Below, piece by piece: positions 37,307 to 62,751 of a DNA stretch of 64,000 nt. Under the pieces are notes generated by a model. It was not told the origin of the DNA. It worked only from the letters and a program-made list of their open reading frames with translations, and did no database searches. The stretch lies in NCBI GenBank assembly GCA_023251115.1, contig JAHEZK010000002.1:1-64000 (forward strand), in the 5' to 3' direction. The position numbers were made by a program, and so were the translations under genes. Source of the DNA: Nitrosomicrobium frigidum (SeqCode). Its GTDB lineage: Archaea > Thermoproteota > Nitrososphaeria > Nitrososphaerales > Nitrososphaeraceae. Numbering within the stretch: position 1 is the first letter of the stretch; each line of letters opens with the position of its first letter.

Positions 37307-37409
37307 CGCCGCTGATCAGACTTGAACTGATGGCCCACTGGTTAACAGCCAGTTAAGCTCCAAAGTAACTAGCCTTTGAATTTGCTCTACCATGCTGAGC
37401 TACAGCGGC
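37307..37409 (-). tRNA. tRNA-Asn (GUU) with 29-nt intron
   Basis: Acceptor GCCGCTG/CAGCGGC pairs fully with discriminator G. D-arm GCTC/GAGC; T-arm ATCAG/CTGAT with loop TTCAAGT. Anticodon arm ACTGG-CTGTTAA-CCAGT with GTT at 34-36. Removing 29 nt (37353-37381) restores the arm. Splice sites fit a BHB motif: central helix GAGC/GCTT, bulges AAA and AAC, and an inner stem TTCAAAG/CTTTGGA. The intron sits in the 5' side of the anticodon stem (27/28), not at 37/38. No CCA is encoded. Confidence 0.93.
37353..37381 (-). other. Non-canonical intron in tRNA-Asn
   Basis: 29 nt inserted between positions 27 and 28. The cut sites lie in 3-nt bulges AA|A and AA|C around a four-pair helix, as needed by the archaeal splicing endonuclease. 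The outer helix is weak, so this is a relaxed BHB. Confidence 0.8.
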
Positions 37410-46645: not shown

Positions 46646-48556
46646 CTACATTCTTTCCAGAGGCGTTATGCCAATTAATGAAAGATTAATTCTCATTATT
46701 TGACGTATTGCTTCAACCAGCGTGATTCTTGCTTTAGACGTATTCGGATTGCTTTCTTTCAATATTGGTAGTATTTCATAAAAAAGGTTGAACAAGGTTG
46801 CCAGCTCATACACGTACTGTGCAACGAGTTTTGGCTCCAGGTTTTTGGTCGTATTGTCGATAGTCATTTCAAATTTTGACAGATGTTTTAGTATCCGCTC
46901 TTCAATCTTTTCTGAAAGGTACTTTACATCACCATCAAATGTTTTTTCATTTGCTTTCTCTATTAATCGGCAACATCGCGCATATGCGTATTGCAAATAT
47001 GGCCCAGAATTTCCGTCTAGACTTAATGAATCATTTAAATCGAATTTTATCTCCTTTTCAAGGTCATTTTTAATTAGACTGTATCTCATCGCAGATATTG
47101 CTATTTCCTCGGAGGTTCTATCAAGATCGTTTCCGTTAATTTCCGGATTACGTTTCATAGTTTCATCCTTGGCTTTACCATACAAAGTATCAAGTACAAA
47201 GTCAGCATCAACATAAATCCCCTTTCTTCCAGACATTTGTGTTGATTTTTGATAGTCCGTATTAATCCCCAAACTAGTAGCGGTTCTACTTGAAAGAAGC
47301 ACAGGACCGTAGGACAAATGCAAGTACTTGTTAGGTTTTGATTCAAATTTACTCAATATTTCCTTAATTATTTTTTGTAACCTTGATTGACGGTTATCAA
47401 TTACGGTTACAGAATATTCGGCGGGGAAGAAAATTGGATGATCACCATTTTTTGATTCATCAGATGTAGTAATCCAGAGATCTGTGCTATCCCATTGTTT
47501 GATGAATACTCTATACTTAAATGGGTCTTCAATTGTTCCAACCTTTAGTAATGCATACGGGATGTCTTTTGCCATGTACGTTGCGGTTCCATCGCTCCTG
47601 ACAATGATTTTAGTTCCCTCTTCAATAGAATTAAAAACCCAACAGCCAATATTTTCACCTTCGCTCTCTTTGAGTATTATTTTTTCCTTTCTCATTTTTT
47701 CAAATGTTTTAGCCCATAAGTTGGATCTAATTATATGAGACTCAAAATTTAGCAGGTCATATCGAACCTTCATTCTCCAACATGTTCGCAACTGATCTTT
47801 AAGTACTTTTGATGTAATTTCAGATGCAAATGAAACTATTTCAGTATCTCCAGATTCTAATTTTCTTAATAACGATTTTCTTTTTTCAATTAGGGAAGGA
47901 TCCTTTTCATAAAGTTCGTTTACCTTTACATAAATCGCGTTACCACAATACTGATCAAACTTAGTTTTCTTGTCTGATGGTTCTACTGGAAACCTAAGAA
48001 ATAAAAATCCTACCAGAATATCGGCCACTTGTAAACCAGAATCATCCACATAATTTAGAACTGTTACATCATGATTTGTTTTTTTCAGTATCCTATACAA
48101 AGTATCCCCAATTACCACATTTCTCAGATGACCTACGTGTAATGCTTTATTTGGATTGACGCTTGTGTGTTCAATAATGACTTTAGTTCTTTTGCCTGTA
48201 TCCAAGTTGAGTTGGTTTTTCAAAATATCAGATATTATTTCTTTACCAATGAGACCAAAGTCTCCCTTGAAATTAATGTATCCACTCTCATGTGCAACGA
48301 CGGATAAAACGTATGATTGTGATTTTGTTACTAGAGTATCAAAATAATGATTACATTGTTCAGCCAATATTGAAGCTATTTCAGACGGCGATTTTTGTAA
48401 TCGCTTTGCGAGCAAGAATGCAACGTTGCAACTCAAATCACCAAAATTCTCTTTTGCCGGTTCACTGAGAGAATAACTCTCATTTTGAATATCTAGACGC
48501 TTTAGTCCAAATTTTATTGCCTCGTTAGCTTCGTTAATAAATTTCCTAAAGCTCAT
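46646..48556 (-). CDS. argS: Arginyl-tRNA synthetase
   Basis: 636 aa. HIGH motif in NPNKALHVGHLRN near residue 134, KMSK-like MSGRKGIYVDAD near residue 445, DALD-like RYSLIKNDLEKEIKF, and a C-terminal helical anticodon domain with LVEAIRQIM. The N-terminal additional domain is complete. TATA-like sequence upstream is not obvious; it follows the HAD phosphatase 3 bp apart, so the two are cotranscribed. Confidence 0.97.
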   Translation of the reverse strand: MSFRKFINEANEAIKFGLKRLDIQNESYSLSEPAKENFGDLSCNVAFLLAKRLQKSPSEIASILAEQCNHYFDTLVTKSQSYVLSVVAHESGYINFKGDFGLIGKEIISDILKNQLNLDTGKRTKVIIEHTSVNPNKALHVGHLRNVVIGDTLYRILKKTNHDVTVLNYVDDSGLQVADILVGFLFLRFPVEPSDKKTKFDQYCGNAIYVKVNELYEKDPSLIEKRKSLLRKLESGDTEIVSFASEITSKVLKDQLRTCWRMKVRYDLLNFESHIIRSNLWAKTFEKMRKEKIILKESEGENIGCWVFNSIEEGTKIIVRSDGTATYMAKDIPYALLKVGTIEDPFKYRVFIKQWDSTDLWITTSDESKNGDHPIFFPAEYSVTVIDNRQSRLQKIIKEILSKFESKPNKYLHLSYGPVLLSSRTATSLGINTDYQKSTQMSGRKGIYVDADFVLDTLYGKAKDETMKRNPEINGNDLDRTSEEIAISAMRYSLIKNDLEKEIKFDLNDSLSLDGNSGPYLQYAYARCCRLIEKANEKTFDGDVKYLSEKIEERILKHLSKFEMTIDNTTKNLEPKLVAQYVYELATLFNLFYEILPILKESNPNTSKARITLVEAIRQIMRINLSLIGITPLERM

Positions 48557-48559
48557 TTC

Positions 48560-49273
48560 TTATCTCAAATAATTTAAACTCACATGGTCTATGGCATCGC
48601 ACAATCCTATCCCCTCCTTGCCGTTTACAACGAGGTCTGCATGTTTCTTTACAGTATCATCTGAGTGGCCCAATGCAATACTCAATCCGCAAATACCAAA
48701 AACGGGAATGTCAGTTTCGCTATCACCAATCGCCACAACTTCTTTCGGTCCGATGTTCAGGAACTTTAGCGCAAGATCAAGTCCTTTTGCTTTATTGACA
48801 CCTAGTTCGTTGATATGAAATGCATATTTACTGTCTACTATATCCAAATCTAAATTTCTCTCTCTTAGTATTTTTTTACCCTCGTTAATGTCAAAAGTTC
48901 TTTGTAGGACAACTTCTGACAGCCTAGGAAATACGGGTTTGACATCGACATTTTCCATATGATCTTTTAATATTTCATATCCTTTCAAACACAATTCCTT
49001 ATTTCCCAGAATTGTATGATCTGAAGGCCCCTTGGAAACAACACCCCCGTTCTCTCCGATGGCGACCCGAGTAATCCCCAAAAACACTGACAATACATAT
49101 GCCTCTACAGAAGATCGGCCCGTAACAAAGAAAACTTTGTAACCTATTTTTTCAAGGAATCTCATTTTTGCGACTGCGGGTAAATATATCATTCCATTCC
49201 CGTTCTCTGTCAAAGTTCCATCAATATCTACTGCGAAGGCTTTGACTCTTAGATCTTTGCTAGACAAAGGCAT
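48560..49273 (-). CDS. Phosphoglycolate phosphatase (archaeal HAD family)
   Basis: 237 aa from ATG 49273; a frame starting at 49366 adds non-conserved residues. Cof-type HAD: AFAVDIDGTLTENGNG has the nucleophilic Asp, VFFVTGRSSVEAYVL the Ser/Thr motif, and AIGDSETDIPVF the acidic motif. Matches archaeal phosphoglycolate phosphatase (TA0175 type). It precedes argS with a 3-bp gap. Confidence 0.88.
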   Translation of the reverse strand: MPLSSKDLRVKAFAVDIDGTLTENGNGMIYLPAVAKMRFLEKIGYKVFFVTGRSSVEAYVLSVFLGITRVAIGENGGVVSKGPSDHTILGNKELCLKGYEILKDHMENVDVKPVFPRLSEVVLQRTFDINEGKKILRERNLDLDIVDSKYAFHINELGVNKAKGLDLALKFLNIGPKEVVAIGDSETDIPVFGICGLSIALGHSDDTVKKHADLVVNGKEGIGLCDAIDHVSLNYLR

Positions 49274-49398
49274 TTTACTGAATAATTCCTTTGAATTTCG
49301 CGTATCATTAACTTTTCTAAAGATGACATCGATGCATGATACCAAATGTCGACAAGCATCTGTCACCCGTGGATTGGTTTTGCGCTACACGTTTACGA

Positions 49399-49407
49399 TT
49401 AAATATT
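49399..49407 (+). promoter_or_regulatory. TATA box of tRNA-Arg
   Basis: TTAAATATT centred 25 nt before the 5' end of the tRNA at 49428. Confidence 0.55.
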
Positions 49408-49427: not shown

Positions 49428-49517
49428 GGGTCCGTGGCCCAGTCAGGACAGGGTGCTGATTTTTCAAGCATAAGCCTCCGAAGCCAGAGTTCGTGGGATC
49501 GAAGCCCATCGGACCCG
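49428..49517 (+). tRNA. tRNA-Arg (CCG) with 15-nt intron
   Basis: 90 nt. Acceptor GGGTCCG/CGGACCC, discriminator G. D-arm GCCC/GGGT. After removal of 15 nt (49459-49473) the anticodon stem reads CTGGC-CTCCGAA-GCCAG, anticodon CCG at 34-36. T-arm GTGGG/CCCAT with loop ATCGAAG, position 54 being A. The splice sites form a BHB: outer AGG/CCT, central GTGC/GCAT, bulges TGA and AAG. Intron lies at 29/30, in the anticodon stem. Confidence 0.9.
49459..49473 (+). other. Very short non-canonical intron in tRNA-Arg
   Basis: ATTTTTCAAGCATAA, 15 nt, between positions 29 and 30. The BHB is formed with exon flanks; the intron itself holds only a UU/AA inner pairing with a UUUC loop. Confidence 0.8.
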
Positions 49518-62465: not shown

Positions 62466-62751
62466 GTGTTAGCTAGCGTGTGGGTTACTCGAAAGAGAGG
62501 AAACTCCTCCCTCGTAACAGGCACTCAAATTAGCGATAATTAGGTGGAGACACCTGGCAACGGAACAGAAAGGGATCCAGTTGACAAAGATGATGATGAT
62601 GGTGAATAGCCTGAAGATGTCAATACTGGAATGAAACCGCCGACCTGAGTGGAGCAAGGACAAAAAGGGTTGAACATTCCTGTATGATCCCAGGTTGACC
62701 GCTCAGTGGAATCCCACTTAAAACAAAAGGAGGGTTACAGCTAGCAAACAC
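62466..62751 (+). ncRNA. rnpB: RNase P RNA
   Basis: About 286 nt. The ends GTGTTAGCTAGC and GCTAGCAAACAC form a P1 helix with one mismatch. GAGGAAACTCCTCC (62497 onward) and AAAGGAGGGTTACAG near the 3' end pair as P4 (compare E. coli GAGGAAAGTCCGGG and CAGAACCCGGCTTATC). Inside, CAACGGAACAGAAA and CCGCC...GGAGCAAGGACAAAAAGGGTTGAACA match further core segments. A T-run (62752 on) ends the RNA. It processes tRNA 5' ends with Rpp29, found at 29618. Confidence 0.9.

What the first reader, a model, noticed from the sequence alone, without database searches (positions are those of the whole stretch)
49428..49517. tRNA-Arg(CCG) with a 15-nt intron in the anticodon stem
Folding shows a 15-nt intron at 29/30 with a bulge-helix-bulge formed by AGG/CCT, GTGC/GCAT and bulges UGA and AAG. 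Archaeal introns can be short, but 15 nt outside position 37/38 is at the low end and places the splice site next to the anticodon stem. It also needs an endonuclease tolerant of non-canonical sites.
Basis: seen in the sequence. Interest (0 to 1): 0.55.

Follow-up and report, generated by a model that had tools for sequence, protein, structure and literature searches.

The report
Ordinary archaeal tRNA-Arg with short intron
An archaeon's arginine tRNA gene is interrupted by a 15-base intron that the cell's ordinary RNA-splicing enzyme should remove; the same intron site is found in many related archaea, so this is a clear but ordinary example of a known kind of gene.

Summary
Window 49428-49517 (+) is a tRNA-Arg(CCG) gene (Rfam tRNA, 37.3 bits) with a 15-nt intron at 29/30 (49459-49473) in a bulge-helix-bulge: AGG/CCU, GUGC/GCAU, bulges UG^A and AA^G. 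The spliced form folds as a cloverleaf and ARAGORN calls it Arg(ccg). This gene and the 37 orthologues matched over most or all of its length in 70 family genomes all parse with an intron at 29/30 (13-30 nt); the 4-bp central helix is complete in 38 of 38, against 3 of 527 other intron 4-mers. The genome encodes a two-subunit splicing endonuclease whose catalytic chain has the loop linked to relaxed specificity. New member of a known kind. Side results: isoacceptors sharing identical introns within a genome, a decayed interrupted gene near an intronless copy, and C33 in tRNA-Arg(CCU).

The parts
49428..49458 (+). tRNA-Arg(CCG) exon 1 (positions 1-29)
   Evidence: Rfam match; gene and 37 orthologues compared
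49459..49473 (+). 15-nt intron AUUUUUCAAGCAUAA at 29/30
   Evidence: removal restores a complete anticodon stem and an ARAGORN tRNA-Arg(ccg); same site in 38 of 38
49474..49517 (+). tRNA-Arg(CCG) exon 2 (positions 30-73), anticodon CCG at 49478-49480, discriminator G73
49450..49452 (+). BHB outer helix 5' strand AGG (pairs with 49475-49477)
   Evidence: AGG/CCU in 38 of 38, but these bases are also needed in the mature tRNA, so this says little
49453..49456 (+). BHB central helix 5' strand GUGC (pairs with 49468-49471)
   Evidence: 4 standard pairs in 38 of 38
49457..49459 (+). 5' bulge UGA, predicted cut UG^A
   Evidence: sequence; a cut between the 2nd and 3rd bulge residue is the rule stated in PMC4307357 (passages)
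49468..49471 (+). BHB central helix 3' strand GCAU
49472..49474 (+). 3' bulge AAG, predicted cut AA^G
   Evidence: sequence; the MFE fold keeps this bulge
49475..49477 (+). BHB outer helix 3' strand CCU
49398..49405 (+). TATA-like box ATTAAATA, 30 to 23 nt upstream of the gene
   Evidence: ATTAAATA (9) or AATAAATA (1) at this offset, within one base, in 10 of 10 rows L031-L040, all of the same genus; promoter role inferred

Best explanation
This is a functional tRNA-Arg(CCG) gene of a Nitrososphaeraceae archaeon (family inferred from named matches) with a non-canonical 15-nt archaeal tRNA intron at 29/30. In the precursor, bases 21-27 (3' side of the D stem and start of the anticodon stem) pair with the intron and with C31-U33 to form a bulge-helix-bulge in place of the D and anticodon stems. 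The two-subunit splicing endonuclease cuts both bulges between their 2nd and 3rd bases and a ligase joins the exons, giving a standard tRNA that reads CGG. Shown here: sequence, mature fold, BHB, conservation, endonuclease genes. Inferred: transcription, cut sites, ligation (ligase gene not searched for), decoding.
For: Rfam hit. Spliced form called Arg(ccg) in 37 of 38; unspliced form given as a tRNA in only 8 of 38, never as Arg(ccg). Intron at 29/30 in 38 of 38, 13-30 nt; central helix complete in 38 of 38 against 3 of 527 other intron 4-mers. Pair 29-41 co-varies. Two endonuclease subunits; the catalytic one aligns over nearly its whole length with 2cv8 and 3p1z_B, including the His that is Ala in 3ajv_B, and has the K-P-K loop (19, 26, 32, 33; loop role 28). 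TATA-like box. Position and length known for archaeal introns.
Against: No RNA evidence of any kind. BHB covariation is weak because the exon side is fixed. A29 x C41 mismatch in 4 of 38 after splicing. With RNA energy parameters and fixed structures the BHB form is about as stable as the interrupted cloverleaf in this gene (-21.3 against -22.0 kcal/mol); it is the better one in 24 of 37 orthologues. Sixteen family genomes (15 of 15 in g5, the 1 of g9) gave no Arg(CCG)-type match, so the tRNA is dispensable in relatives.
Confidence: 0.95

Rival explanations
1. A tRNA pseudogene or decayed copy that is not spliced.
For: ARAGORN misses the unspliced gene. In one relative (G027) an interrupted copy has mismatches in the acceptor stem and an intronless Arg(CCG) lies nearby. 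The CCG gene was not found in some genera.
Against: All four stems are intact here; exons are conserved across the orthologues with some compensatory changes; TATA-like box in 10 of 10 genus rows. One search shows no second CCG match in this genome.
Confidence: 0.03
2. Another isotype with an intron elsewhere, for example tRNA-Glu(UUC) with a 15-nt intron in the anticodon loop.
For: ARAGORN with introns allowed proposes Glu(ttc) for this sequence.
Against: In the 4 relatives tried with the same option it gives Arg(tcg) twice and nothing twice. The loop CUCCGRA is the same in 38 of 38, while the intron bases read as UUC lie in a stretch that varies in sequence and length. The Glu reading leaves a mismatched stem (by eye).
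Confidence: 0.01
3. Same intron, but removed through a relaxed half-motif with the 5' bulge closed as in the MFE fold.
For: The MFE of the unspliced RNA closes the 5' bulge; the inner helix is only 2 bp here and 0-9 bp among the introns.
Against: A full 3-4-3 bulge-helix-bulge can be drawn in this gene, and the central 4 bp are complete in 38 of 38.
Confidence: 0.15

Closest known systems
Archaeal non-canonical tRNA introns (Crenarchaeota, Thaumarchaeota)
   Same: Position 29/30 is listed, length range 11-129 nt, BHB motif, two-subunit endonuclease.
   Different: Nothing essential; host gene and sequence are new instances. I did not see an Arg(CCG) 29/30 intron of this lineage named in the passages read.
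29/30 introns of other Arg isoacceptors (UCG, GCG, UCU) in the same class and phylum
   Same: Same position, same central-helix register, similar exons.
   Different: Other anticodons; 12-51 nt in the rows that parsed cleanly.
Split tRNA-Ala genes of Caldivirga at 29/30 (review)
   Same: Same junction position.
   Different: Those are encoded in separate pieces and trans-spliced; here one continuous gene.

Membership tests
tRNA-Arg(CCG) | Cloverleaf after splicing with anticodon CCG | tested here: met
   Arg(ccg)
tRNA-Arg(CCG) | Charged with arginine and decodes CGG | not testable with these tools
   A20, C35, G36, G73 present, which fits Arg identity as I recall it from E. coli
Archaeal BHB tRNA intron | 4-bp central helix between two 3-nt bulges at the exon borders | tested here: met
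   sequence; central helix in 38 of 38; MFE fold shows it with the 5' bulge closed
Archaeal BHB tRNA intron | Conserved intron position among orthologues | tested here: met
   29/30 in 38 of 38
Archaeal BHB tRNA intron | Covariation within the BHB helices | tested here: inconclusive
   1 pair changed on both sides, reached by 94 of 500 shuffles; sliding the partner lowers pairing from 100% to at most 61.6%
Archaeal BHB tRNA intron | Splicing endonuclease present | tested here: met
   two PF01974 proteins in the genome
Archaeal BHB tRNA intron | Length within the reported range | tested here: met
   15 nt; reported 11-129 nt
Archaeal BHB tRNA intron | Excised in the cell | not testable with these tools
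   needs RNA
Two-subunit (alpha-beta)2 endonuclease with crenarchaea-specific loop | Two different subunits, one with the K-P/V-K/R loop | tested here: met
   loop described in PMC12397907 passages
Two-subunit (alpha-beta)2 endonuclease with crenarchaea-specific loop | Assembles as a heterotetramer and cuts non-canonical sites | not testable with these tools
   needs biochemistry

The most novel reading that the evidence does not exclude
The 29/30 site is a long-lived, shared intron slot of the Arg tRNA set, kept in step between isoacceptors by gene conversion or by re-creation of isoacceptors from one another. The precursor fold, which must give up the D stem to form the BHB, may delay folding until splicing and so act as a maturation checkpoint.
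Probability: 0.1. Interest if true: 0.4.

Novelty: new member of a known kind. Interest (0 to 1): 0.17.

Why it matters
It supplies the right annotation for a gene that a simple tRNA finder misses, and shows that one intron site recurs in Arg tRNAs across an archaeal class and beyond. That makes a useful data set for studying how tRNA introns are gained, kept and lost, but it does not change what is known about splicing.

Tried and rejected
A search pattern with wrong spacing found nothing in 232 genomes and is discarded. The later patterns also match intronless genes, so their tallies (93 of 296 and 218 of 397 genomes) are not counts of introns; only sequences that were fetched and parsed are used. 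The exact 33-base search of named genomes found nothing; a looser pattern found 25 stretches. The Glu(UUC) reading was rejected on conservation. The shuffle test on the BHB helices gave no clear covariation. My parser failed on some loci (counts in the full report; 11 failures and the bad parse L167 were tried again and failed again); these are not counted. L164, L166 and L169 are ambiguous, perhaps with two introns. A paper search for the shortest archaeal tRNA intron and one for Nitrososphaera tRNA introns listed nothing.

Full report
What is there. The gene at 49428-49517 (+) scores 37.3 bits against the Rfam tRNA model and is one of 38 tRNA matches in the 1.8-Mb assembly, 91% complete in 137 contigs. 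Exon 1 is 49428-49458, intron 49459-49473, exon 2 49474-49517. The spliced sequence is called tRNA-Arg(ccg) by ARAGORN and its MFE structure is the cloverleaf with two extra D-loop pairs. The free fold of the precursor shows both helices and the 3' bulge but closes the 5' bulge, and is only moderately better than shuffles (z -1.74). With fixed structures (inner helix left out) the BHB form and the interrupted cloverleaf have nearly the same energy here, -21.3 and -22.0 kcal/mol; the BHB form is better in 24 of 37 genes, L075 having been left out of that count because its acceptor is broken.

Conservation. A DNA search of 70 genomes of the family, own genome included, gave a long match in 38 genomes, 37 over bases 1-90 and one (G027) over bases 10-90. 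All 38 were read and parsed: intron at 29/30, 13 to 30 nt; 35 of the 38 genes are distinct. The central helix is complete in 38 of 38, while 3 of 527 other 4-mers of the same introns could pair. After splicing the anticodon stem is complete in 34 of 38 (32 G29-C41, 1 G29-U41, 1 A29-U41); the other 4, all of genus g6, have A29 x C41. On 29 chosen rows, the broken L075 among them, the mature stems are 99.0% paired, with 4 pairs changed on both sides (24 of 500 shuffles reach 4; none reaches the covariation score). The BHB helices are 100% paired on the same rows, but with only 1 such pair, which 94 of 500 shuffles reach; sliding the partner lowers pairing to at most 61.6%. ARAGORN of 38 spliced sequences Arg(ccg), the exception being L075; of the 38 unspliced ones it gives some tRNA for 8, of other or undetermined type.

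Enzyme. Two proteins of the splicing-endonuclease family are encoded. The 199-aa one aligns with 2cv8 and with 3p1z_B (organisms Sulfolobus tokodaii and Aeropyrum pernix, recalled), including the His of GPGIDHAP, which is Ala in 3ajv_B, and the loop YKPKGVDF opposite EKPRGADF. The 198-aa one has no His at that place and matches solved endonucleases more weakly. This fits the two-subunit type reported for Crenarchaeota and Thaumarchaeota (passages of PMC4090602 and PMC3218864), with the loop tied to broad specificity (passages of PMC12397907).

How common the site is. The loci below were fetched because they scored well or bore a motif like the 3' splice site, so they are examples and not a survey. 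Of 24 loci from other families of the class, 18 parse as a 29/30 intron with complete anticodon stem and central helix, 1 more (L102) with 3 of 4 central pairs, 3 are intronless and 2 did not parse. Of 40 further loci (4 of them, L168 and L181-L183, from the family itself), 15 parse cleanly, 3 are ambiguous, 1 is a bad parse, 10 are intronless and 11 did not parse. Of 47 loci from the phylum search, 23 parse cleanly (21 Arg anticodons, 2 with UCC, read as Gly), 18 are intronless and 6 did not parse. Anticodons CCG, UCG, GCG and UCU are all represented. In the two f19 genomes read (7 loci) the introns are 12 nt; genome G084 has one in each of these four isoacceptors. Within G083, and within G084, the CCG and GCG genes share an identical intron that differs between the two genomes.

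Gain and loss. None of the 15 genomes of genus g5, nor the one of g9, gave an Arg(CCG)-type match, although in g5 the UCG gene matched in 14, the CCU gene in 14 and the GCG gene in 12 of 15; one near match in G018 is tRNA-Ala(cgc) by ARAGORN. The list is cut at G057, so genus g10 was not seen. Loss of C34 tRNAs is known in other archaea (passages of PMC6000648; it held one thaumarchaeon). In G027 the interrupted CCG gene (L075) has acceptor strands GCGCGCC and CGGGCCC, with three mismatches, and fails ARAGORN, while an intronless Arg(CCG) whose 5' exon resembles tRNA-Arg(UCG) lies about 1.6 kb away (L168).

Place among known things. Review PMC4090602, section 4 (read), gives 11-129 nt for archaeal tRNA introns, medians mostly 12-25 nt, and names 29/30 and 30/31 among non-canonical positions. 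The tRNAscan-SE 2.0 paper (passages) reports 107 non-canonical introns in Thaumarchaeota. Cutting at irregular positions by crenarchaeal enzymes has been shown experimentally (passages of PMC4307357). So the case is a new instance of a known kind. I did not see this exact gene in the passages read; the searches made cover open-licence papers only.

Context. Twenty-five stretches of named genomes hold the same kind of gene. Their titles are mostly Nitrososphaera, Nitrososphaeraceae or Nitrososphaerales, with Thaumarchaeota isolates TA_21 and TA_15, Candidatus Nitrosopolaris, one Nitrososphaeria and one titled Nitrosopumilales; habitats were not checked. The tRNA gene lies head to head with a HAD-type phosphatase gene, behind which is arginyl-tRNA synthetase. 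By tblastn the phosphatase is found in 27 of 30 family loci L031-L060 (own included), divergent from the tRNA in 27 of 27 at 61-1368 bases, and in 24 of 25 named loci; the synthetase in 11 of 30, limited by short flanks, and 22 of 25. The two sets of loci overlap in the genomes they come from.

Noticed in passing
L065 / L223 (G000:C65:1274-1307, -); also L219-L222, L224-L226: tRNA-Arg(CCU) has C33 instead of the near-universal U33 (loop CCCCUAA) plus a D-loop intron. Identical over the matched stretch in 8 of 12 genus genomes, with no match at all in the other 4; matches in other genera of the family read CUCCUAA. C33 is known in Sulfolobales tRNA-Cys (passage of PMC7668247).
   Followed up: partly
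window 46646-49366 (-) beside 49428 (+): The tRNA-Arg(CCG) gene is head to head with a HAD-phosphatase gene followed by arginyl-tRNA synthetase; the divergent phosphatase is found in 27 of 30 family loci.
   Followed up: partly
L027 (G000:C24:1500-1589, +): tRNA-Phe(GAA) appears by eye to carry a 16-nt intron at 30/31, another short anticodon-stem intron.
   Followed up: no
L029 (same gene as L087), L076-L079, L083-L086: tRNA-Arg(UCU) of the family, with a 37/38 intron, keeps a U29 x C41 mismatch in its anticodon stem (CCUGC / GCCGG) (by eye).
   Followed up: no
L022, L029, L031 against L014, L065: Three of five Arg isoacceptors of this genome have T-loop AUCGAAG (A54, G60) where the other two have UUCAAAU; AUCGAAG is also in Arg genes of families f10 and f11 (by eye).
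   Followed up: no
L151/L152 (G083) and L154/L155 (G084): CCG and GCG Arg tRNA genes of one genome share an identical 12-nt intron that differs between the two genomes, suggesting gene conversion or recent anticodon switching.
   Followed up: partly
window 37307-37409 (-): tRNA-Asn(GUU) with an intron-like insertion of about 25-28 nt near the end of the D arm (by eye).
   Followed up: no
window 62468-62749 (+): Archaeal RNase P RNA, 169 bits.
   Followed up: no
G000 tRNA census: By my reading about 16 of the 38 tRNA matches carry one or more introns, several at non-canonical places; not checked one by one.
   Followed up: partly
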